Assembly (NCBI RefSeq): GCF_022267315.1
Contig: NZ_JAIKLE010000032.1
Location: forward strand, 1-64,000
Length of the DNA stretch: 64,000 bases
Direction: 5' to 3'
Source: Maribellus maritimus
GTDB lineage: Bacteria; Bacteroidota; Bacteroidia; Bacteroidales; Prolixibacteraceae
A program made the translations under genes and the position numbers. Shown here in pieces: positions 1,801 to 54,013 of this stretch. Within the stretch, counting starts at the first letter, position 1; each line of letters begins with the position of its first letter. The notes beneath the pieces were generated by a model. It worked only from the letters and a program-made list of their open reading frames with translations, was not told where the DNA came from and made no database searches.

Positions 1801-1909
1801 TTCTTTTTTCATGAAATACCATAAAAATTTATTCTTCGTTCATCCCTTTCTGCATTTTGCTCGTTTTATTATTGCAAGTGTTACAAGTTCTTTAATAACT
1901 ACAAAAATT

Positions 1910-3874
1910 ATGAGAAAATTACTTTTGTTTTTTGTTTGTTTAATTTCCGTTTCTCCGGGTATACTACAGGCACAGGAAGAGGAGATGGGAGAACCCTTAG
2001 AATCTCAGAATTATAATAATATTGGTGTTTTTGATTTTCCTGGAGTGAGTTGCAAACCTTTGGGAGTTGCTTATTTATCAGGGAAAGAATACCCTGATCT
2101 ATTTTTAGCATCAGATAAATGGAATCCCGGATTTTTCTATTATGAATTTGCAGGCTTTTCCCAGAAAGGAGTTCCTGTGTTTTTAGAAGCAAAGGAATTT
2201 AAAACTCCGGCTACATATAAGAATTTAGGTTGTGTAAAAGAAATCGGAGGGAAAATCTATGGATTTTGGTATATCGACAAAAAAATTGTTTCCTGCGTTT
2301 TTGATTCCAAGTCTTTTGAGTTTAAAAGAGAAAAAGAATTAGCTGTTTCATTTCCCCGAAATCCAGGGCCGTTTTCAGTGGAAATCAATCAAAAAGGAAA
2401 TTATGTTTTTGTCTTTTCGATTGGTGATGGTGTAAATACAAGAGCTCCCGGCGATGGAAGAGATGCTGATTATATTCCTTACAGACCGGATGGCGTGTAT
2501 AATGGAGGAATCTCTTACTCTGATTTATATAAAGTTGAGGTTGCAAATGATTTTAACTCAGTTGTAACGGAAGCAACAAAAATTTCAAAAGGAGATGTAA
2601 AGGTAAGATCAAGTCATCAGGGAATTACAAAAATAGAGGTGAACGATAATCGGGAAGGATTGGTGACGGGATCCTGGTTTGGTAATTTGTATTTTTTTGA
2701 GTTGTCAAAAGATTTTGATGTTCAGGAAGAAGGAATAGTTAGTGGAGCCGATTTGATAACACTTCGACATCCAACAATTTGGCCAACACCGCTTGTCTAT
2801 CCCGGAACGGATCGGAAATGGAATAACTTAATTGCATCCGGAGAAGGAGGAATTTATTTTTATAAATACCTTGGCTTTTCTGAAAAACGTAACGCCCCGA
2901 TTTACGATACTCCGCAGCATTTATTAAAACAAAATTCAAATTTAAAAGGAGGTTCGCTGGTTGTTCCAACAATGGTTGACTGGGATGGAGACGGAAAAAC
3001 GGATATTGTTGCAGGGAATTCACTCGGACAGATTTTGTTCTTCAGAAATTTAGGAGATAACCAAACACCGCAATTTTCTGCCGGAGTTCCACTGGAAGCT
3101 GGTGGCAAAGAAATTCATATACAGCCCGGTTATGGAGAAGATATTCAGGGGCCGTTTGAATCGCGATGGGGATATACTTGCCCAAATGTTATTGATTGGA
3201 ATGACGATGGTGTGTATGATATTGTGATGGGCGATAGCAGAGGAAAACACACTGTTTATATAAATAAAGGAACACCTCAAAAGCCGGAATTGGCAGAGGA
3301 ACATCCGATTTATTTGGAAGGATTGGAACTTCATGGAACGTGGCGTTGTAAACCGGGAGTAGCAAAAATTGGAGATAAAATGGCTTATGTTACGCTCGAC
3401 GATGACGATGTATTTCATTTATATTGGCAAATTGATGCCTATAACCTGAAGGAGGGATTCAAACTTTGTTTGGAAGATGGAACGCCAATAGAAGGTAATT
3501 TCCTGGAAGCTGGAGGTACCGGTCGTTTAAAATTTAATATTGTTGATTGGGATCTTGACGGAACTTTGGATTTAATTGTCGGCACGCCGCGACACGGTTG
3601 TGTCCCTAATCCGAAAGAGGGATTACCCTGGAGGTATCTGGATGAAGGACGCCCTGGTTCAGCCGTTCTTTTTCTGAAAAATGTAGGTACAGATGAATCA
3701 CCGAAATATCACTTCCCAAAACTCTTAAGATATAAAGGAAAGCCAATTTATTTGGGACAGCATTCCTGTGCACCGACACCTTGGTACAGAAATAGTAAAA
3801 CCATTCCCGATATACTTGTTGGAAGAGAAAATGGAATGTTTTATTATTTCGACAGAAAAGATATTAGTTGGTAG
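1910..3874 (+). CDS. Secreted VCBS/FG-GAP repeat protein
   Basis: The frame is open from 1811, but the ATG at 1910 starts a standard signal peptide (MRKLLLFFVCLISVSPGILQAQ), so I choose that start; the product is 654 residues. Several repeats carry Ca2+-binding Asp-rich loops followed by an I/LVxG strand: DWDGDGKTDIVAG, DWNDDGVYDIVMG and DWDLDGTLDLIVG, each the hallmark of a VCBS/FG-GAP beta-propeller blade. No catalytic motif is visible, so it is probably an exported binding or adhesion propeller, periplasmic or on the surface. It has no lipobox and no T9SS tail. It stands alone between tmRNA and a bidirectional terminator. Sequence context gives no substrate. Confidence 0.8.
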   Translation: MRKLLLFFVCLISVSPGILQAQEEEMGEPLESQNYNNIGVFDFPGVSCKPLGVAYLSGKEYPDLFLASDKWNPGFFYYEFAGFSQKGVPVFLEAKEFKTPATYKNLGCVKEIGGKIYGFWYIDKKIVSCVFDSKSFEFKREKELAVSFPRNPGPFSVEINQKGNYVFVFSIGDGVNTRAPGDGRDADYIPYRPDGVYNGGISYSDLYKVEVANDFNSVVTEATKISKGDVKVRSSHQGITKIEVNDNREGLVTGSWFGNLYFFELSKDFDVQEEGIVSGADLITLRHPTIWPTPLVYPGTDRKWNNLIASGEGGIYFYKYLGFSEKRNAPIYDTPQHLLKQNSNLKGGSLVVPTMVDWDGDGKTDIVAGNSLGQILFFRNLGDNQTPQFSAGVPLEAGGKEIHIQPGYGEDIQGPFESRWGYTCPNVIDWNDDGVYDIVMGDSRGKHTVYINKGTPQKPELAEEHPIYLEGLELHGTWRCKPGVAKIGDKMAYVTLDDDDVFHLYWQIDAYNLKEGFKLCLEDGTPIEGNFLEAGGTGRLKFNIVDWDLDGTLDLIVGTPRHGCVPNPKEGLPWRYLDEGRPGSAVLFLKNVGTDESPKYHFPKLLRYKGKPIYLGQHSCAPTPWYRNSKTIPDILVGRENGMFYYFDRKDISW

Positions 3875-3879
3875 AAAGA

Positions 3880-3920
3880 AAAAATGTCAGCTGTTATTTG
3901 TAAATAGCTGATATTTTTTT
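3880..3920. terminator. Bidirectional terminator between convergent genes
   Basis: TCAGCT (3887-3892) pairs with AGCTGA (3906-3911). The stem is flanked by an A-rich run on the left and a T run on the right, so it can end transcription from both the VCBS gene and the galU operon. Confidence 0.7.
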
Positions 3921-3921
3921 G

Positions 3922-4791
3922 CTATAGTTTTCCTACAAAGTCTTTTAGCCATACTTTAATTGATTCTCCAATTTCCGGATCTTCCAAGGCAAATTCAATA
4001 TTGGTTTTCAGAAAGCCCATTTTATTTCCGATATCGTACCTTTTTCCATTGAATTTTAACCCGTACATGGCTTGCTTTTTTACCATCTCGCGCATGGCAT
4101 CAGTAAGTTGAATTTCGTTATTTTTTCCTGGAGGTGTTTTCTCCAATAAATCAAAAATTTCAGGAGTAAAAATATAACGACTGGCAACTGCAAGGTTGGA
4201 AGGTGCTTCTTCCGGTGACGGTTTCTCAATCCAGTCTTTGGCTTTAAATACGTTTTCTGTAACTGCTTCCCCGTCAATAATTCCATAGCGATGAACCAGT
4301 TCGAGTTTTACCTCTTCGAGCGCAATGACCGAACTTTGGTACTTTTCATAAACATCGATAAGTTGTTTGGTTACCGGACCGTCTTCGCTTTTAACCAGCG
4401 TGTCGCCCAGCAAAATCACAAAAGGCTCATTGTTTACATGGTAGCGCGCATGGAGAATGGCGTCACCCAAACCGTTCATTTCTTTCTGCCAAACAAAATG
4501 GATGTTTGCAAGGTTAGAAATCGAGCGAATTTTATCGAGTGTTTTTAAGTCTTGTTTTTTTAACAGTGATTCTTCCAGTATAGGGCTTCTGTCAAAATGT
4601 TCTTCAATAGCTCGTTTGCCTTTCCCGATAATCATCAGAATATCAGTAATTCCGCTTTCAACGGCTTCTTCAACTACGTGTTGTATTACTGGAGTATCTA
4701 TAATAGGAATCATTTCCTTAGGCTGAGATTTTGTGGCCGGGAGAAACCGGGTTCCATATCCTGCCGCAGGAATAACTGCTTTTTTGATCAT
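3922..4791 (-). CDS. galU: UTP-glucose-1-phosphate uridylyltransferase (GalU type)
   Basis: A 289-residue sugar-1-phosphate nucleotidyltransferase that makes UDP-sugar and pyrophosphate from UTP and hexose-1-phosphate in the cytoplasm. The N-terminus has the nucleotide-binding signature AAGYGTRFLPATKSQPKEM, followed by DTPVIQHVVEEAVESGI, the GDTLV region near residue 130 and the conserved WIEKP segment. Length fits GalU. It starts 2 bp after the stop of a glucuronokinase-like GHMP kinase, so the two are almost certainly co-transcribed. That pairing raises the possibility that it accepts glucuronate-1-phosphate besides glucose-1-phosphate (inference). The bidirectional terminator at 3880-3920 closes the operon. 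Confidence 0.9.
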   Translation of the reverse strand: MIKKAVIPAAGYGTRFLPATKSQPKEMIPIIDTPVIQHVVEEAVESGITDILMIIGKGKRAIEEHFDRSPILEESLLKKQDLKTLDKIRSISNLANIHFVWQKEMNGLGDAILHARYHVNNEPFVILLGDTLVKSEDGPVTKQLIDVYEKYQSSVIALEEVKLELVHRYGIIDGEAVTENVFKAKDWIEKPSPEEAPSNLAVASRYIFTPEIFDLLEKTPPGKNNEIQLTDAMREMVKKQAMYGLKFNGKRYDIGNKMGFLKTNIEFALEDPEIGESIKVWLKDFVGKL

Positions 4792-4793
4792 AT

Positions 4794-5798
4794 TTAATTG
4801 TTGTTTATAATATTGGGTTTTATAACTTCAATTTCGTTATTGTTCATTATGTCGTGCAATTTATTGTACATTATTTCGTCAGCGTACGTTCCTATTATTG
4901 CACCTCCTGAACCAGTAAATTTTGCACTTGCTCCAACAGAACGGGCCAACTCTACCATTTCAATATTTCCTTGTGATACAGGAATTAGATTTCTTCGCAA
5001 ATCGAAATTTTCATTGATCAGTTCATGCATTTTTTGTTTATCCCTCTTTTCAAGAGCGGCTTTAAATTCTTCGGTTATTTGCGCCCATCTCTTCATCGCC
5101 TGCAGTACTTTTCCTTCCTTTATTTCAAATCGTGCTTTCAGGTTATTGTGTACCGTTTCTGTCCCTTCCGACAGGTTTTTTCGGTAGGCGATATAAAAAT
5201 TTGGAAAATGAACATTGTGCAAAGTTTCATATTTGCCATACCCTTGTTTTTCCATAATTTTTTTATCGAAATTCATAAAGACAGGTTTCTCGTATGCCTG
5301 GGCAACTCTGTCCTGGAGACCTGCCGATATGCCCAGTTCATTGGTTTCAACTGAAAGTACCAGATTCGCAAAAATGGCAGGTTCAATGTAAACTTCATAA
5401 AATAAACAAAGGGCTTTTAAGCAGGCTGTAAGAATAGCACTTGAGCCAGCCAGTCCTAACCTTAAAGGAATATTGGAATTGTAGGTAATCGTAAAATTCT
5501 TCGAAGCTAGTTTTATATTGTTCCTTTTACAATATTCGTAAAACACTTTTACGATCCCTTTTATCAAACGCATACCTCCGTAATATCCTGCAAAATTGAT
5601 ATTGTCTACCAACTCATCCAGATTATTGTAGGTTGTTTTGTCAGCACGCTGAGGTTTTATTTCAAGCTGAGGTGTTTGGTAAAGCTGAACTTTTACGATA
5701 AAGTTTGAAAAAACAAATGCGATGGTTTTTCCAAAATAGCCATCGGAAGGGTTGCCGATAACTGCAGCCCGGGGATATGAATATGTCTCAATAATCAT
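4794..5798 (-). CDS. GHMP kinase resembling plant glucuronokinase
   Basis: A 334-residue GHMP-superfamily small-molecule kinase. The phosphate-binding motif 2 is GLAGSSAI (near residue 117) and motif 3 is KFTGSGGAI (near 295). From memory of Arabidopsis glucuronokinase, many segments match closely: GNPSDGYFGKTI, YYGGMRLIKGIVKVF, GISAGLQDRVAQ, NFDLRRNL and NIEMVELARSVGASAKF. That family phosphorylates D-glucuronate at C1 with ATP. Archaeal and bacterial sugar kinases of the same superfamily cannot be excluded. It lies between an acyl-CoA synthetase (24 bp upstream) and galU (2 bp downstream), which would use a sugar-1-phosphate product. Confidence 0.8.
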   Translation of the reverse strand: MIIETYSYPRAAVIGNPSDGYFGKTIAFVFSNFIVKVQLYQTPQLEIKPQRADKTTYNNLDELVDNINFAGYYGGMRLIKGIVKVFYEYCKRNNIKLASKNFTITYNSNIPLRLGLAGSSAILTACLKALCLFYEVYIEPAIFANLVLSVETNELGISAGLQDRVAQAYEKPVFMNFDKKIMEKQGYGKYETLHNVHFPNFYIAYRKNLSEGTETVHNNLKARFEIKEGKVLQAMKRWAQITEEFKAALEKRDKQKMHELINENFDLRRNLIPVSQGNIEMVELARSVGASAKFTGSGGAIIGTYADEIMYNKLHDIMNNNEIEVIKPNIINNN

Positions 5799-5821: not shown

Positions 5822-7726
5822 TTACGAATTCCATTTTTTAATGGCTTCCAGATTCAATTCATTTTCAATATTTTTTGCTTCAGAAGTATAAAGAAAATCT
5901 AAATGAGTTTTGAAATATTCAGTTATTTTTCCACGTACAACTTTCATTGAGGCATTAACAAGTGCATTTTCCTGAGTGAACGCTTCCGGCAAAACAACTA
6001 TGTTCGCGGGCAACCATCTTTCAGGGAATTCGCCTTCATATATCCCGCCTTTTTTATATTGTTGCACATCGTTAAGGATGATTTTTAAAGACTCTCTGTT
6101 TCCTTCTTCCGAACCCGGTGTAATGTTTCTTTTTTTAAGCTCCCTGTTTATTGCTTCAACATCAGGAATAAGCATTCCAACGGTAAACGGATTTTGATTA
6201 TTGTAAAGCATTGCCTGCTGAATAAAAGGCGATTTGTCAACCAGTGCCTCTTCAATTCCTTCGGGGCTGTATTTTTCACCGTCATTCCCAATGAGCAAAC
6301 TTTTAAAGCGTCCAAGCACAACCAGGAAATCATCTTCATCCATATAGCCCATGTCACCGGTATGTAACCATCCTTCTTTTAAGGTATTGGCTGTTGCCTG
6401 TGGATTATTCCAGTATCCCAGCATCACATTATCTCCTTTTACAACAATTTCCCCTTTTTGTCCTTTGGGTAATTCATTTCCATTTTCATCGAGAATTTTT
6501 AGCTCCAAATCTTTTATTAGTTTTCCGGAGGTGCCAAATTTTACAACTTGTGGTGTATTTGAGGAAATTACAGGTGCTGCTTCGGTTAATCCATATCCCT
6601 GGCAAATTGGAATCCCTACAGCGTAAAAGAAGCGTTGCAACTCGGTGTCGAGAAGTGCGCCTCCTCCTATGAAAAACTGAAGATTTCCCCCAAATCCATC
6701 ACGTATTTTTTTGAAAAGAATAGAGTCAAAAAGAGATAAGAGAGGTTTTAGAAATATGCGAAATCCTTTGCCTCGGTTATGTCCTTCGCCATTGTATTTG
6801 TACGCAATATTTAATGCAAATTGAAATAATTTATATGTGCTTTCACCTTTTTTTCGTATTCCGGCTTCAATATTTTTTCGAAAGGTTTTCGAAAATGCGG
6901 GAACACTCATCATAAGTGTTGGCTTAATTTCCTGAATATTTTTTGGAATATTTTTTAGTGTTTCAAGCGGTGTATTTCCAATTTCAACCGATGCAATACT
7001 TGCTCCTTTGTACATAAAAACGTACAAACAGGTTGTGTGGGCAAAGGCATGATCCCAGGGAAGAATGGCCAGTGTTTTCCAATCCGGTTGTAAATCGAGT
7101 AATGAATTTGATTGGACTACGTTTGCGGCATAGTTGAGTTGTGTCAGCATAATTCCTTTTGGATCGGCTGTTGTTCCTGATGTGTAAGAAATATTGGCCA
7201 CATCGCCAGGCTGAATATTTTTCCAAATGGAATCAAATTTCTCAGCATTGTTTTTTAAGTATTCCTCACCAAGTTTAAAAAGCTCTTTGTAGTCGAGGTC
7301 TTTTTCTCCGGGATTCTCTTTCCCGTCCAGATATATTACTTTTTTTAATTCAGGAAGTTCATCTCTGATTGCCTCAACTTTATTTGCATGTTGTTTGGAG
7401 ACAAAAATATATTTACTCCCACTATGGTATAGGCGAAAAGAAAGTTCATTTTTTTCAAGTCTGATGGATAAAGGGACGTTGATGCCACCGGCATATAACA
7501 TAGCCAGTTCACTTATTATCCAATCATTTCTTCCATCGGAAATCAACCCGGCTCTGTCACCCTTTTCAAATCCAATGGATACGAGTCCTGCTGCGAGTTT
7601 TATAACTTTTTTACGGGTTTCTGTATACGTTGTTCCCTGGTATTTTCCGTCTTTTTTTTCCCATAAATATACGTTTTCGGGAAATTTATTTACCGCTGTT
7701 TCAAAGAGCTCAATAATCGTTTTCAT
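5822..7726 (-). CDS. Long-chain acyl-CoA synthetase (AMP-forming)
   Basis: A 634-residue ANL-superfamily enzyme that activates a fatty acid with ATP and CoA via an acyl-adenylate. The frame extends three codons to a TTG, but the ATG at 7726 (MKTIIELF) is the natural start. Motifs are the P-loop YTSGTTADPKG near residue 185, YGLTEAAPV near 385, GWLHTGDMG near 445 and the hinge LGRFKSLL. Length and the insert between the P-loop and YGLTEAAP fit the FadD15-like long-chain group typical of Bacteroidota. It is probably the first gene of the unit with the GHMP kinase and galU, with a 24-bp gap, though its lipid chemistry does not obviously belong to sugar-nucleotide synthesis. Confidence 0.88.
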   Translation of the reverse strand: MKTIIELFETAVNKFPENVYLWEKKDGKYQGTTYTETRKKVIKLAAGLVSIGFEKGDRAGLISDGRNDWIISELAMLYAGGINVPLSIRLEKNELSFRLYHSGSKYIFVSKQHANKVEAIRDELPELKKVIYLDGKENPGEKDLDYKELFKLGEEYLKNNAEKFDSIWKNIQPGDVANISYTSGTTADPKGIMLTQLNYAANVVQSNSLLDLQPDWKTLAILPWDHAFAHTTCLYVFMYKGASIASVEIGNTPLETLKNIPKNIQEIKPTLMMSVPAFSKTFRKNIEAGIRKKGESTYKLFQFALNIAYKYNGEGHNRGKGFRIFLKPLLSLFDSILFKKIRDGFGGNLQFFIGGGALLDTELQRFFYAVGIPICQGYGLTEAAPVISSNTPQVVKFGTSGKLIKDLELKILDENGNELPKGQKGEIVVKGDNVMLGYWNNPQATANTLKEGWLHTGDMGYMDEDDFLVVLGRFKSLLIGNDGEKYSPEGIEEALVDKSPFIQQAMLYNNQNPFTVGMLIPDVEAINRELKKRNITPGSEEGNRESLKIILNDVQQYKKGGIYEGEFPERWLPANIVVLPEAFTQENALVNASMKVVRGKITEYFKTHLDFLYTSEAKNIENELNLEAIKKWNS

Positions 7727-7803
7727 AATAAACAATTTGTTCGATTTATTACGTTTAGCGATTCAAATGTAAGAAAAAAAGACAAAAAGGGAACTGTATT
7801 GTG

Positions 7804-7835: not shown

Positions 7836-8879
7836 TCATATTTTGAATTTATAGACGGTTTTTTCCTTGTATTTTTCTCCGGGGTTTAATAACGTAGTTG
7901 GAAAATTATCGTGATGAACCGAATCCGGATAGTGTTGTGTTTCAAGAGCAACTCCCGAATAGCTTCCAAATTTTTTCACTTCGTCAATATGTAGTTCCGG
8001 ATTCCAGTAGCCGGTGTAAACCTGCATTCCGGGTTGAGTTGTGTAAACCTCAACTTTTCTTCCTGATTTTTCTTCTTTTAAACAAGCAATATATTTGAAT
8101 TCTCCTTTTTCATTGTCAAAAACAAAATTGTCGTCGTAACCGGTTGGCAGTCCTTCCATGTCACGAATAAATGTTTTTGACGAAGTAAAATCAAACGGAG
8201 TATTTTTAACCGGAACGATTTTTCCTGTAGGTATTTGTTCTACCATCTCAGTCATTTTTGTTGCCGTTAATTCCAGTTCATGGTTCAGAATATTTTCTTT
8301 TCCGCCGGTTAAATTAAAGTAGGTGTGATTGGTTAAATTTACAACTGTCGTTTTATCGGTTTCAGCCGAGTATTCAATACCCAGTTCATTATCGTTGTTT
8401 AATGTGTAAGTGCAGGTTACGTTTAAATTTCCGGGATAATTTTCTTCCAGATCAGGACTGAGATAAGAGAGTTTTACCCCAATATACTCATCGTTTTCAA
8501 TTGTTTCAGCATCCCAAAGTTTTTTGTCGAAACCAACCAGGCCACCATGCAAATGATTTGGCCCGTTGTTTATTGCCATTTCATACGTTTTTCCTTCAAT
8601 TTCCAGAAGCCCTTTTGCAATCCGGTTTCCACAACGACCGATAATGGCACCAAAGTATGGGTAACTTCCCAGATAGGCTTCACTGATGTAATCTTCCAGC
8701 CTTTCAAATCCGCAAACAATATTTTCTTTACTGCCCGTTTTGTCAGGGGTGAAAATGCTTGTTATTATTGCACCATAGTTGGTAATTTTAACAGTTACAT
8801 CATTGTTGTTTGTTAGCGTAAACAAAGTAGCTTCTTTGCCGTCGGTTAATTTGCCGAATATTTCAGATTGTATTTTCAT
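7836..8879 (-). CDS. galM: Aldose 1-epimerase (galactose mutarotase)
   Basis: A 347-residue cytoplasmic mutarotase converting beta- to alpha-D-galactose ahead of galactokinase. Family motifs are IIGRCGNRIAKG near residue 85, NNGPNHLHGG near 107 (catalytic His), and NLTNHTYFNLTGG near 185 (second His). Near 250 the TGYDDNFVF segment and near the C-terminus ALETQHYPDS carry the expected conserved acids. It is divergent from the GntR-type regulator at 9006, and a tandem ACTGGTrGGT operator sits 45-64 bp upstream of its ATG, matching one ahead of galT-galK. That links it to one galactose regulon. Confidence 0.93.
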   Translation of the reverse strand: MKIQSEIFGKLTDGKEATLFTLTNNNDVTVKITNYGAIITSIFTPDKTGSKENIVCGFERLEDYISEAYLGSYPYFGAIIGRCGNRIAKGLLEIEGKTYEMAINNGPNHLHGGLVGFDKKLWDAETIENDEYIGVKLSYLSPDLEENYPGNLNVTCTYTLNNDNELGIEYSAETDKTTVVNLTNHTYFNLTGGKENILNHELELTATKMTEMVEQIPTGKIVPVKNTPFDFTSSKTFIRDMEGLPTGYDDNFVFDNEKGEFKYIACLKEEKSGRKVEVYTTQPGMQVYTGYWNPELHIDEVKKFGSYSGVALETQHYPDSVHHDNFPTTLLNPGEKYKEKTVYKFKI

Positions 8880-50445: not shown

Positions 50446-52224
50446 ATGAGTAAAAAAATGAACATAATAGTTCGATTTCATAAGTGGCGGCTAAGAAATA
50501 TGAGTGAACGTGGATTTATTACCGCGTTGAGTATTCTGGTTGGTTTGCTGGCAGGATTTGCAGCAGTTGTCATAAAGAACATGGTCAGACTTACTCAGGA
50601 AACTGTAAATAAGCTAATTGCCAGTGAAGTACATAATTACATCTACTTTGCACTTCCCATTGTTGGTATTTTAATAACCGTTATCATTGTGCGGTTTGTA
50701 ATTCGCAGGGAAGTTCGCCATGGTATTCCAACCGTTCTTTATGGTATCTCAAAAAAGAACGGGAGAATAAGTAATCACAATTTATTTTCATCAGTTGTTG
50801 CCAGTTCTTTAACAGTCGGCTTTGGTGGTTCTGTTGGGTTGGAAGGACCTACTGTTGCTACCGGAGCTGCCTGGGGATCATGGTTATCCCGTGCTTTTAG
50901 ACTAAACTACAAAAATACAATCCTGATACTGGCCTGTGCCTGCGCCGGAGCGATGGCTGCCATTTTTAAAGCGCCTATCGCAGCAATTGTATTTGCAGTA
51001 GAAGTTATAATGATCGACTTAACTGTTTTTTCCCTGGTTCCTTTGCTGCTTTCATCGGCTACTGCGGTGGTTACCTCTTATTTTTTTCTAGGGCAAAATG
51101 TACTTTATCCTTTTGAAGTAAATGTCGCCTTTGAGCTTGCCGACCTGCCTTACTATATTGTTTTAGGAATTATAGCAGGATTTGTTTCTGTTTACTTCAT
51201 TAAAATGTACACCTTTTTGGGGAAGATTTTTGATAGGATGGAAAACAAATGGTTTCGTTTACTACTTGGAGGAGCTGGACTGGGGCTGCTGATATTTTTG
51301 TTTCCTTCTCTATTCGGGGAAGGATATGAGGCCATAAACTCTTGTTTGGCAGGGGATCTCGAATATTTGTTTAATAACAGTTTGTTTTACGGTTTAAGGG
51401 AAGAATTATGGGCGGCACTTGTGCTGTTAACAATAGTTGTTTTGTTGAAGATTGTGGCTACTTCGTTAACCTTTGGAGCGGGAGGAGTAGGAGGTATTTT
51501 TGCTCCAACACTGTTTATGGGAGTAAATACAGGAATGTTATTTGCGCAATTGATCAATCTTTCCGGTATTCGGCAAATAAATTCAAACAATTTTGCGCTG
51601 ATCGGTATGGCAGGACTAATCGCCGGGGTATTGCACGCACCTTTAACCGGCATTTTTTTAATTGGCGATATTTCCGGTGGTTATAAACTGTTTGTCCCGC
51701 TTATGATTACAGCAACTTTTGCATACATTATTGTCCGTACTTTTACTCCAAATTCAGTATATCACATTCAGTTGGCTCAACGAAAAGAGTTATTAACCCA
51801 CGATAAAGATGCAAATGTGCTGCAAATGCTAAAAGTCAGAAAACTTATAGAAACTGATTTTGAAAAACTTTCTCCCGATGCTACTCTGGGCGACTTAACC
51901 AAGGCAATTTCCCGTAATCACCGAAATTTATTTCCTGTGGTTGATGAGCAAGGAAATATGGTTGGAATGCTAAAAATGGATGATGTCAGAGATATGATAT
52001 TTAATCATGAATTATATGACAAGGTAAAAATAAGTGAATTGATGTACATGCCTGAATACCATATCGATCCCAATGATAGTATGGATGTGGTTGCCAATAA
52101 ATTTGAATCTTCCAGCAGATATAATCTGGCGGTGATTGAAAATGGTAAATATTTAGGATTTATATCGAGGGCCAGGGTTTTTACCAATTATCGCAAACAG
52201 ATTAAAGATGTATCGCATATTTAA
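50446..52224 (+). CDS. ClC chloride channel/exchanger with CBS domains, copy 1
   Basis: A 592-residue membrane protein with about 18 helices typical of ClC proteins. Selectivity motifs: RHGIPTVLYG near residue 91 (G-x-x-P position), GSVGLEGPTVATGA near 127 (replaces GREGP; the gating Glu is kept), and GAGGVGGIFAPTLFMG near 345. Two CBS domains follow (about 475-590). No external proton-Glu can be placed safely. It is followed by a paralogue with a 17-bp overlap. Confidence 0.9.
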   Translation: MSKKMNIIVRFHKWRLRNMSERGFITALSILVGLLAGFAAVVIKNMVRLTQETVNKLIASEVHNYIYFALPIVGILITVIIVRFVIRREVRHGIPTVLYGISKKNGRISNHNLFSSVVASSLTVGFGGSVGLEGPTVATGAAWGSWLSRAFRLNYKNTILILACACAGAMAAIFKAPIAAIVFAVEVIMIDLTVFSLVPLLLSSATAVVTSYFFLGQNVLYPFEVNVAFELADLPYYIVLGIIAGFVSVYFIKMYTFLGKIFDRMENKWFRLLLGGAGLGLLIFLFPSLFGEGYEAINSCLAGDLEYLFNNSLFYGLREELWAALVLLTIVVLLKIVATSLTFGAGGVGGIFAPTLFMGVNTGMLFAQLINLSGIRQINSNNFALIGMAGLIAGVLHAPLTGIFLIGDISGGYKLFVPLMITATFAYIIVRTFTPNSVYHIQLAQRKELLTHDKDANVLQMLKVRKLIETDFEKLSPDATLGDLTKAISRNHRNLFPVVDEQGNMVGMLKMDDVRDMIFNHELYDKVKISELMYMPEYHIDPNDSMDVVANKFESSSRYNLAVIENGKYLGFISRARVFTNYRKQIKDVSHI

Positions 52225-54013
52225 GTATTGGTGGTTGACGGGTTCAAAAAAGACTTTGAACAAAATTGTCGCGTGGAGAATTGCAAATATTCCTGAACGT
52301 AGGTTTCTTTATCTTTTGAGTTTAATTATTGGATTGCTTAGCGGAATAGCGGCTTTGGTTTTAAAAAATCTTATTCATTTTGTTGAAGAAGAATTAACCG
52401 GGTGGTTTGCTGTTGAGGGATTTAGTTATCTCTACCTGGTTTATCCTTTGATAGGAATATTTTTTACGGTGTTGTTTGTTCGTTTTTTTATAAAAGATGA
52501 TTTGGGGCATGGAGTATCAAAAATACTTTATGCAATTTCAAAAAAAGCAAGCCGTTTAAAACCTCATAATACCTATTCTTCTATGGTAGCCAGTTCACTG
52601 ACTATCGGGTTTGGAGGTTCGGTTGGTTCTGAGGCACCAATTGTGTTAACCGGCGCTTCCATTGGTTCAAACCTCGCACGTATTTTTAAACTGAATTATA
52701 AATATGTAACTCTAATGGTTGGGTGCGGAGCAGCAGGTGCTATTGCCGGAATCTTTAATGCTCCAATCGCCGGAATCGTATTTACACTTGAAGTTTTGAT
52801 GCTGGATATGACAATGGCTTATCTTATCCCTTTGTTAATTTCTGCAGTTTCGGCTACTACAATTTCTTTCTTCTTTATGGGAGAAGGTGTGCTGCTCAGG
52901 TTTACCCAGATTCAGCCTTTTCATATCAATTCAATTTGGTTTTTTATTATTCTCGGAATTTTTACCGGCTTTCTTGGTTTGTTTTTTACCAGGGCAACGA
53001 TGTCTCTCGAAAAAAAGTTTGCTTCCATAAAAAGTTGGGTTTTTAGGTTACTTGTCGGCGGTTTTGTATTGGGAATATTGGTTCTGCTCTTTCCTCCGCT
53101 TTTTGGTGAAGGTTATTCAAGTATCCTGAAGATTTTTAACGGGAATGGAGTTGAACTTCTTGACAGCCCCATGTTTTCCGGATGGAAAAATAACGATTAT
53201 CTGATCATCCTTGTTTTGGCAGGAATACTTTTGTTTAAAGTTGTCGCCATGTCGGCTACTACTGCTTCCGGTGGTATCGGTGGTATTTTTGCCCCAACAC
53301 TTTTTATGGGAGCTGTGGCTGGTTTTTTTCTCGCGCGTATCATCAATTTAATTTACGATGCAGGTCTTCCTGAGAATAGCTTTGCTCTTGCTGGAATGGC
53401 TGGAATGATGGCGGCCGTAATGCACGCCCCTTTAACCGGAGTTTTTCTTACTGCTGAGATCACAGGGGGGTATGGATTTTTTATCCCATTGATTGTAACC
53501 TCAACGATTGCTTATGTAACCATAATGCGTTTTGAGCCTCATTCTGTTTATACAAAACGCCTTGCTCAGCGGGGGGAATTAATAACGCATCATAAAGATA
53601 AAGCAGTTTTAAAGATGATGAAATTGCGTAAACTTATTGAAACTGATTTTGAAATACTATCACCCGATGCTACTTTAAGGGATTTGGTAAAAGCAATATC
53701 GCATTCACATCGAAATTTATATCCAGTTGTGGATTCAGAAGGGAAGATGCACGGAATGGTAAAGTTGGCCGATGTTAAGAATTTGATTTTTGAAACAGAT
53801 TTATATGATTCGGTAAAAGTTAAAGATTTAATGTACATGCCTGAATTTTATATTTCTCCGACAGATAATATGGAGAAGGCTGCTGAAAAATTTGAAACTT
53901 CCGGAAGATACAATCTCGCTGTTATTGACGAAGGGAAGTATCTTGGATTTATTTCGAGAGCGGTTGTATTTTCAAAATACAGAAAAACGCTTCAGGATTT
54001 CTCACACGATTAA
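52208..54013 (+). CDS. ClC chloride channel/exchanger with CBS domains, copy 2
   Basis: A 601-residue paralogue. Motifs: GHGVSKILYAISKKA near residue 97, GSVGSEAPIVLTGASIGS near 137 (the gating Glu remains, the following Gly is Ala), and ASGGIGGIFAPTLFMG near 355. The CBS pair includes RKLIETDFEILSPDATLRDL, nearly identical to copy 1. The start at 52208 overlaps the end of copy 1, so it is co-translated. The pair may form a heteromer or have diverged in gating. Confidence 0.9.
   Translation: MYRIFKYWWLTGSKKTLNKIVAWRIANIPERRFLYLLSLIIGLLSGIAALVLKNLIHFVEEELTGWFAVEGFSYLYLVYPLIGIFFTVLFVRFFIKDDLGHGVSKILYAISKKASRLKPHNTYSSMVASSLTIGFGGSVGSEAPIVLTGASIGSNLARIFKLNYKYVTLMVGCGAAGAIAGIFNAPIAGIVFTLEVLMLDMTMAYLIPLLISAVSATTISFFFMGEGVLLRFTQIQPFHINSIWFFIILGIFTGFLGLFFTRATMSLEKKFASIKSWVFRLLVGGFVLGILVLLFPPLFGEGYSSILKIFNGNGVELLDSPMFSGWKNNDYLIILVLAGILLFKVVAMSATTASGGIGGIFAPTLFMGAVAGFFLARIINLIYDAGLPENSFALAGMAGMMAAVMHAPLTGVFLTAEITGGYGFFIPLIVTSTIAYVTIMRFEPHSVYTKRLAQRGELITHHKDKAVLKMMKLRKLIETDFEILSPDATLRDLVKAISHSHRNLYPVVDSEGKMHGMVKLADVKNLIFETDLYDSVKVKDLMYMPEFYISPTDNMEKAAEKFETSGRYNLAVIDEGKYLGFISRAVVFSKYRKTLQDFSHD

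What the first reader, a model, noticed from the sequence alone, without database searches (positions are those of the whole stretch)
3922..5798. Possible UDP-glucuronate salvage pair: glucuronokinase-like GHMP kinase plus GalU
The kinase resembles plant glucuronokinase over nearly its whole length and ends 2 bp before a UDP-sugar-forming nucleotidyltransferase. In plants these activities turn free glucuronate into UDP-glucuronate. A bacterial two-gene version would bypass UDP-glucose dehydrogenase.
Basis: partly seen in the sequence, partly recalled or inferred. Interest (0 to 1): 0.6.

Follow-up and report, generated by a model that had tools for sequence, protein, structure and literature searches.

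The report
Bacterial glucuronokinase-like kinase paired with GalU
Some bacteria carry two side-by-side genes, a sugar kinase resembling the plant enzyme that activates glucuronic acid and a matching GalU-type enzyme, which probably recycle a free sugar acid directly into a building block for polysaccharides, as plants and some animals do.

Summary
In detail: a 334-aa GHMP kinase (4794-5798, minus) ends 2 bp before a 289-aa GalU (3922-4791, minus). The kinase passes no named kinase model. It aligns at 44% over 306 aa with Arabidopsis glucuronokinase 1, a sequence I could only recall, so that is a lead; it stands apart from HddA-like kinases and galactokinases. The new finding is how strictly the genes go together: in 395 sampled Bacteroidota genomes the same 11 have the kinase and a true GalU, and in 41 kinase-bearing records the genes are neighbours in 40, in either order and once on a plasmid. 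All 26 partner GalUs compared have Thr/Ser131 and Ala203, each seen in 1 of 22 other GalUs. Best reading: the pair phosphorylates a free sugar at C1 and makes the UDP-sugar, most likely UDP-glucuronate. Against it: nothing was assayed, the neighbourhood names no sugar acid, galactose genes lie close in the window's relatives, and this GalU is the only UDP-glucose pyrophosphorylase I found in the genome. A bypass of UDP-glucose dehydrogenase is not supported, since a dehydrogenase-like gene is present. My paper searches listed no bacterial glucuronokinase.

The parts
4794..5798 (-). GHMP-superfamily sugar kinase, glucuronokinase (GLCAK)-like, 334 aa; one match in the own genome
   Evidence: AlphaFold model mean pLDDT 83.3 matches GHMP kinases in the PDB
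5310..5312 (-). kinase Asp163 in AGLQDR, presumed catalytic Asp by position (GHMP motif recalled), invariant in 22 of 22 aligned kinases
3922..4791 (-). GalU-type UTP:sugar-1-phosphate uridylyltransferase, 289 aa; the only GalU over the cut-off found in the own genome
4399..4401 (-). GalU Thr131, where 18 of 22 comparison GalUs have Asp (a glucose contact in PaUGP, predicted in YngB; mapping of positions is mine); Thr or Ser in 26 of 26 paired GalUs
4183..4185 (-). GalU Ala203, next to the backbone glucose contact that I map to 202; Ala in 26 of 26 paired GalUs and in 1 of 22 comparison GalUs
4462..4464 (-). GalU Asp110 (GLGD), where all 22 comparison GalUs have His; Asp in 21 of 26 paired GalUs, His in the other 5
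5822..7735 (-). context: AMP-binding long-chain acyl-CoA synthetase-like gene, 23 bp upstream of the kinase; beside the pair in 12 of the 26 loci compared, all of the window's genus or labelled Prolixibacteraceae or Bacteroidales
7836..8879 (-). context: aldose 1-epimerase (GalM-like), upstream on the same strand; near the pair in 6 of the 26 loci compared

Best explanation
The two genes form a compact salvage unit. The kinase uses ATP to phosphorylate a free sugar at C1, and the neighbouring GalU couples the sugar-1-phosphate to UTP to give the UDP-sugar and pyrophosphate. The sugar is most likely D-glucuronate, so the product is UDP-glucuronate, used for surface or exopolysaccharide. Shown here: homology, strict co-occurrence and adjacency, and partner-specific GalU substitutions at or next to positions that touch glucose in other GalUs. 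Inferred: coupling of the two reactions, the choice of glucuronate (from kinship with glucuronokinase) and the use of the product.
For: Kinase and GalU occur in exactly the same 11 of 395 sampled Bacteroidota genomes, in 8 genera. Of 37 related genomes searched for both, the same 12 have the kinase and a GalU over the cut-off. The genes are neighbours in 40 of 41 distinct records; in the exception, G250, both are present on different contigs. Order is kinase-GalU or GalU-kinase (L083-L087), with otherwise unrelated neighbours outside the window's relatives, so the pair rather than an operon is what is kept. A pair sits on a Rufibacter tibetensis plasmid. A tree of 35 rows puts 22 bacterial kinases with the recalled Arabidopsis GLCAK1 (100/99), apart from HddA-like kinases and galactokinases. 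The recalled sequence was typed after I had seen the window kinase and 12 relatives but before the distant ones were printed, and fits those as well (46.7% with L081). All 26 paired GalUs compared share Thr/Ser131 and Ala203, at or next to residues that contact glucose (PMC7961091 and PMC11796359, passages). Zebrafish glucuronokinase accepts only glucuronate among nine sugars (PMC3938481, passages). Glucuronate isomerase-family genes (PF02614) are in 32 of 32 kinase-positive genomes searched, three of them with weaker scores, so intracellular uronate is plausible.
Against: No enzyme was assayed. The plant sequence was recalled, not fetched, and the tree program warns that long branches meet there. 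No scanned neighbour names glucuronate; galactose genes lie beside the window pair and several relatives, and a galK-like gene lies about 3 kb away in G050 too. This GalU is the only UDP-glucose pyrophosphorylase I found in the genome. Residue 131 is not decisive: Klebsiella GalU has Val there and tolerates change. PF02614 is also in 12 of 16 kinase-negative genomes of the genus. MIOX, the plant source of glucuronate, is absent from the own genome; it is in 3 of 32 kinase-positive genomes, and in the phylum sample in 3 of 11 kinase-positive against 25 of 384 others (Fisher p 0.036, uncorrected, two of the three in one family). The genome already has a UDP-glucose dehydrogenase-like gene.
Confidence: 0.65

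Rival explanations
1. Same two-step salvage logic, another sugar: the kinase phosphorylates galacturonate, a pentose, galactose or another hexose at C1 and GalU makes the corresponding UDP-sugar.
For: The pair lies beside galM, galT and galK in the window, beside galM or galK in several relatives, and about 3 kb from a galK-like gene in the order-level relative G050. The changed GalU positions do not by themselves name the sugar.
Against: The genome has its own galK, with the galactose-binding signature PF10509, which did not match the pair kinase. In the 12 more distant loci (L045, L079-L089) none of the galactose gene clusters appears, within the 8-31 kb held. Plant galacturonokinase is described as very different in sequence from glucuronokinase (PMC3938481 discussion).
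Confidence: 0.19
2. GalU is simply the UDP-glucose pyrophosphorylase of these genomes, and the kinase is an unrelated or loosely related salvage gene beside it.
For: This is the only GalU over the cut-off in the genome and no PF01704 enzyme was found there. The catalytic and UTP-binding positions checked keep the GalU residue in 26 of 26 paired proteins.
Against: 384 of 395 sampled phylum genomes show neither such a GalU nor the kinase; 24 of the 25 related genomes without GalU still have NDP-sugar dehydrogenases over the family cut-off. GalU goes with the kinase even when neighbourhood, order or linkage changes. The paired GalUs share substitutions that the compared GalUs mostly lack.
Confidence: 0.12
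3. A heptose-phosphate or fucose kinase of a GDP-sugar pathway that has been mislabelled.
For: Closest solved sequence is an HddA-like kinase (3k85, E 4.6e-8).
Against: HddA model 50.5 bits, where five HddA-like rows of relatives score 403-443 (the curated cut-off is 600, which those rows miss as well). Recalled GLCAK1 has 21-24% identity with HddA-like rows, and the clades are separate at 100/99. The partner is a GalU, not a GDP-heptose or GDP-fucose enzyme. No fucokinase row was tested in the tree.
Confidence: 0.03

Closest known systems
Plant glucuronokinase GLCAK plus UDP-sugar pyrophosphorylase USP (myo-inositol oxygenation pathway)
   Same: GHMP kinase of the same type by alignment with recalled AtGLCAK1; two steps from free sugar acid to UDP-sugar.
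   Different: The second enzyme is a prokaryotic GalU, not USP; the two genes are adjacent; no MIOX was found in the own genome.
Zebrafish DrGKUP, fused nucleotidyltransferase-glucuronokinase (PMC3938481)
   Same: Kinase paired with a short bacterial-type nucleotidyltransferase; in L083-L087 the order is nucleotidyltransferase first, as in the fusion.
   Different: Separate genes here. The partner passes the GalU model; the paper says that the prokaryotic relatives of the zebrafish domain are pyrophosphorylase only. Whether that domain and GalU are close relatives was not tested. The zebrafish pyrophosphorylase activity was extremely low.
GalU, UTP-glucose-1-phosphate uridylyltransferase (YngB 7o2n/7b1r, HpGalU 3juk)
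   Same: Full-length homology (YngB E 1.5e-87), catalytic residues kept.
   Different: Thr/Ser131, Ala203 and mostly Asp110 in the paired proteins; strict link to a kinase.
HddA-like heptose-phosphate kinase and galactokinase
   Same: GHMP fold and motifs.
   Different: Much lower model scores than the HddA-like and galactokinase proteins of related genomes; separate clade.

Membership tests
Glucuronokinase (GLCAK, EC 2.7.1.43) | GHMP kinase motifs and fold | tested here: met
   PF00288 over cut-off; the named kinases among the listed PDB fold matches are GHMP kinases
Glucuronokinase (GLCAK, EC 2.7.1.43) | Full-length sequence kinship with plant or animal GLCAK | tested here: inconclusive
   43.8% over 306 aa and 100/99 clade, but against a GLCAK1 sequence recalled from memory; no eukaryotic GLCAK could be fetched
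Glucuronokinase (GLCAK, EC 2.7.1.43) | Specific ATP-dependent C1 phosphorylation of D-glucuronate | not testable with these tools
   needs an enzyme assay
GalU (TIGR01099) | Score over the curated GalU cut-off | tested here: met
   369.6 against 326.8 bits
GalU (TIGR01099) | Conserved uridylyltransferase residues (G11, R15, K25, E26, Q102, G109, D130, E189, K190) | tested here: met
   26 of 26 paired GalUs
GalU (TIGR01099) | Preference for glucose-1-phosphate | not testable with these tools
   needs an enzyme assay; pocket substitutions raise doubt
HddA heptose-phosphate kinase (NF049969) | Score over the curated cut-off | tested here: not met
   50.5 of 600 bits; five HddA-like rows of relatives reach 403-443
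Galactokinase | Galactose-binding signature PF10509 | tested here: not met
   no match at E 0.001 in the pair kinase, 59.1 bits in the window galK
Mevalonate kinase (TIGR00549) | Score over the curated cut-off | tested here: not met
   65.9 of 163 bits

The most novel reading that the evidence does not exclude
A portable two-gene UDP-glucuronate salvage unit in bacteria, in which a GalU has been retuned from glucose-1-phosphate to glucuronate-1-phosphate (no acidic residue at 131, which faces glucose in other GalUs, plus Ala203), possibly recruited twice from different GalU lineages to the same kinase family. It would be the efficient glucuronate-1-phosphate pyrophosphorylase that the zebrafish work lacked as a positive control.
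Probability: 0.42. Interest if true: 0.7.

Novelty: new variant of a known kind. Interest (0 to 1): 0.56.

Why it matters
Bacteria are taught to make UDP-glucuronate by oxidising UDP-glucose. A kinase plus GalU that are inherited together would be a direct salvage route like the plant one, but with a different second enzyme. It would add a sugar acid to what GalU-type enzymes accept, explain scattered GalU genes in a phylum where most sampled genomes show none, and give a simple two-enzyme route from glucuronate to UDP-glucuronate.

Tried and rejected
Heptose-phosphate, galactose and mevalonate kinase labels: disfavoured on model scores and tree. Galactose metabolism as the defining context: not kept in the 12 more distant loci, though kept in several relatives and near in G050. 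MIOX as a constant partner: rejected, 3 of 32 kinase-positive genomes searched. Independent double recruitment of GalU: the free tree needs two changes but a single clade is not rejected (p-AU 0.336), so it stays a possibility only. Viral homologues: none in viral contigs, phage records, and no significant match in the viral structure library. The viral-contig scan used two short patterns and would miss distant relatives. The GalU model (mean pLDDT 80.3, residues 13-32 below 50) was made but not used. Sampling another phylum was not possible.

Rows dropped or overlapping: 7 of the 15 loci are the same contigs as hits (contig lengths) and are counted once, giving 41 distinct records (22 + 8 + 10 + 1). 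Eight weak hits (E 5.4e-10 to 2.3e-4) are not counted as the kinase; of the seven scanned, five are HddA-like, one weakly so, and one is a galactokinase. The phylum searches scored at most 5 (kinase) or 6 (GalU) candidates per genome in the rows shown, and a very divergent GalU could fall under E 1e-60. The GalU residue counts use 26 of the 41 pairs and 22 comparison GalUs (16 from plasmids, 6 from the PDB, some closely related). Of the comparison records 11 plasmids were scanned for the kinase and gave none, with no positive control in that call and without their chromosomes. The kinase tree has 22 of the 41 kinases. Twenty neighbour genes were scanned with Pfam, not all.

Full report
What is there. 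The window holds a 334-aa GHMP-superfamily kinase at 4794-5798 on the minus strand and, two bases downstream, a 289-aa GalU at 3922-4791 on the same strand. Upstream on that strand lie an AMP-binding acyl-CoA synthetase-like gene (5822-7735) and a GalM-like epimerase (7836-8879); a galactose gene set (GntR-type regulator, galT, galK, sodium/solute symporter) runs away on the plus strand. GalU passes the curated GalU model with 369.6 bits against 326.8. The kinase passes no curated kinase model: 65.9 of 163 for mevalonate kinase, 50.5 of 600 for HddA, 34.6 of 443 for galactokinase. Cut-offs alone are a weak test, since five HddA-like kinases of relatives (403-443 bits) and the window galK (168.3 of 499) miss theirs as well; the size of the gap is what tells. 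Its best solved relatives by sequence are HddA-like kinases at E 4.6e-8 and 4.8e-7 and mevalonate kinases near 1e-6; a profile of 13 kinases gives the same leading entries. An AlphaFold model (mean pLDDT 83.3) matches mevalonate kinases, galactokinases, a heptokinase and a fucokinase at query TM 0.64-0.80, which fixes the fold but not the sugar.

Kinship with glucuronokinase. No eukaryotic glucuronokinase could be fetched from the collections on hand. It aligns with the window kinase at 43.8% over 306 aa, and with a profile of the bacterial kinases at 318 bits over nearly the whole length. In a tree of 35 rows, 22 bacterial kinases and this sequence form one side of a branch (100/99) against HddA-like kinases and galactokinases; the program warns that long branches meet at the plant sequence, and no fucokinase row was included. 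HddA-like and galactokinase rows give 21-30%, mostly over partial lengths.

The pair is a unit. In 61 genomes around the window's genus, 22 have the kinase at E below 1e-100. In the 37 of them also searched for GalU, the 12 with the kinase are exactly the 12 with a GalU over the cut-off, and the hits are adjacent. In an even sample of 395 Bacteroidota genomes, 11 have the kinase (E up to 1e-30) and the same 11 have a GalU (E up to 1e-60). The chance of two random sets of 11 coinciding is about 1e-21, an overstatement since the genomes are related (8 genera) and since each search scored only a few candidates per genome. Over all distinct records, 41 have the kinase and 40 have GalU beside it. 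The exception, G250, has both on different contigs. The order is GalU-kinase in five genomes of one family (L083-L087) and kinase-GalU in the others. Around the pair nothing else is constant in the 26 loci compared: the acyl-CoA synthetase is beside it in 12 and galM near it in 6, all of the window's genus or labelled Prolixibacteraceae or Bacteroidales, and the more distant pairs sit beside genes such as MgtE, DUF885, an ABC transporter ATPase, carbohydrate esterase-like, FG-GAP or FAD-oxidoreductase genes. In the order-level relative G050 a glycosyltransferase gene lies just upstream and a galK-like gene about 3 kb away. One pair lies on a 235-kb plasmid of Rufibacter tibetensis.

A GalU with an altered pocket. 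I aligned 26 of the paired GalUs with 22 others, 16 from plasmids and 6 from the PDB. The catalytic and UTP-binding positions checked are kept in all 26. Residue 131 is Thr or Ser in 26 of 26 (others: Asp 18, Met 2, Thr 1, Val 1); residue 203 is Ala in 26 of 26 (others: Ala 1 of 22); residue 110 is Asp in 21 of 26 and His in 5 (others: His 22 of 22); position 23 also differs (Gln 21 of 26 against 2 of 22). In YngB Asp134 and Val204, which I map to 131 and 202, are predicted to touch glucose (PMC7961091, passages). In P. aeruginosa UGP, Asp131 coordinates glucose and its Ala mutant is almost inactive, whereas Klebsiella GalU has Val there and tolerates change (PMC11796359, passages). Lacking an acidic residue where the substrate might carry a carboxylate fits glucuronate-1-phosphate, but it is an inference, and residue 131 alone proves nothing. 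In a GalU tree the paired proteins fall in two places, yet one clade is not rejected (p-AU 0.336).

Metabolic setting. The own genome has a full-length UDP-glucose 6-dehydrogenase-like gene (551 bits to TuaD, below its 700 cut-off; over the TIGR03026 cut-off), so no bypass is needed. No other GalU and no PF01704 enzyme was found; three other nucleotidyltransferases examined read as RfbA, a glucose-1-phosphate cytidylyltransferase and a MurU/GlmU-like protein. This GalU might therefore also supply UDP-glucose. A glucuronate isomerase-family gene is in 32 of 32 kinase-positive genomes searched (weaker, 256-286 bits, in G122, G239 and G314) and in 12 of 16 kinase-negative ones. MIOX is in 3 of 32 kinase-positive and 0 of 16 kinase-negative genomes of that set; in the phylum sample it is in 3 of 11 kinase-positive and 25 of 384 other genomes, and not in the own genome.

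Literature. I searched the held library for glucuronokinase with bacteria (26 papers, listing), with GHMP and bacterial (4), with UDP-sugar pyrophosphorylase or Bacteroidetes, two of three terms (19), for glucuronic acid kinase (2), glucuronic acid 1-phosphate with UDP-glucuronic acid and bacteri (1) and bacterial glucuronokinase (0). None of the listed titles or abstract openings shows a bacterial glucuronokinase; most subscription papers are not held. PMC3938481 (abstract, sequence-analysis section, discussion and passages read) describes a zebrafish fusion of a nucleotidyltransferase and a glucuronokinase specific for glucuronate among nine sugars, with extremely low pyrophosphorylase activity and no positive control, and says that prokaryotic relatives of the nucleotidyltransferase stand alone. 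PMC12203929 (passages) reports six UGPases specific for glucose-1-phosphate, with the cassava and potato enzymes below 10% on other sugar phosphates, glucuronate-1-phosphate among them. PMC9721052 and PMC6604206 were read in passages only. PMC11005391 was opened but no passage matched.

Verdict. The most likely function is salvage of a free sugar acid, probably glucuronate, to its UDP form. The sugar and the GalU preference are open to a simple assay.

Noticed in passing
G009:C4 about 2464006-2467775 and G016:C13 about 1902-5644 (L060-L063): In two genomes of the genus an ORF of about 1,110 aa with pieces of PF01704 (UDPGP) lies within a few kb of a 291-297 aa GalU-like ORF below the GalU cut-off; a different nucleotidyltransferase arrangement.
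   Followed up: no
window 50446-54013: Two tandem CLC chloride-channel genes with CBS domains, 592 and 601 aa, followed by an asparaginase-family gene.
   Followed up: no
L086:6047-8008 and L088:6546-8672: An FAD_oxidored (PF12831) gene lies near the kinase in two distant genomes.
   Followed up: no
window 5822-7735: A long-chain acyl-CoA synthetase-like gene sits directly upstream of the kinase in 12 of 26 loci compared, with no clear metabolic link to sugar activation.
   Followed up: partly
phylum sample of 395 genomes: 384 of 395 Bacteroidota genomes gave no GalU at E up to 1e-60, and PF01704 was found in only 2 of 37 genomes searched, which leaves open how many of them make UDP-glucose.
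   Followed up: no
window 1811-3874: An FG-GAP repeat protein (687 aa) ends tail to tail with GalU, 47 bp apart.
   Followed up: no
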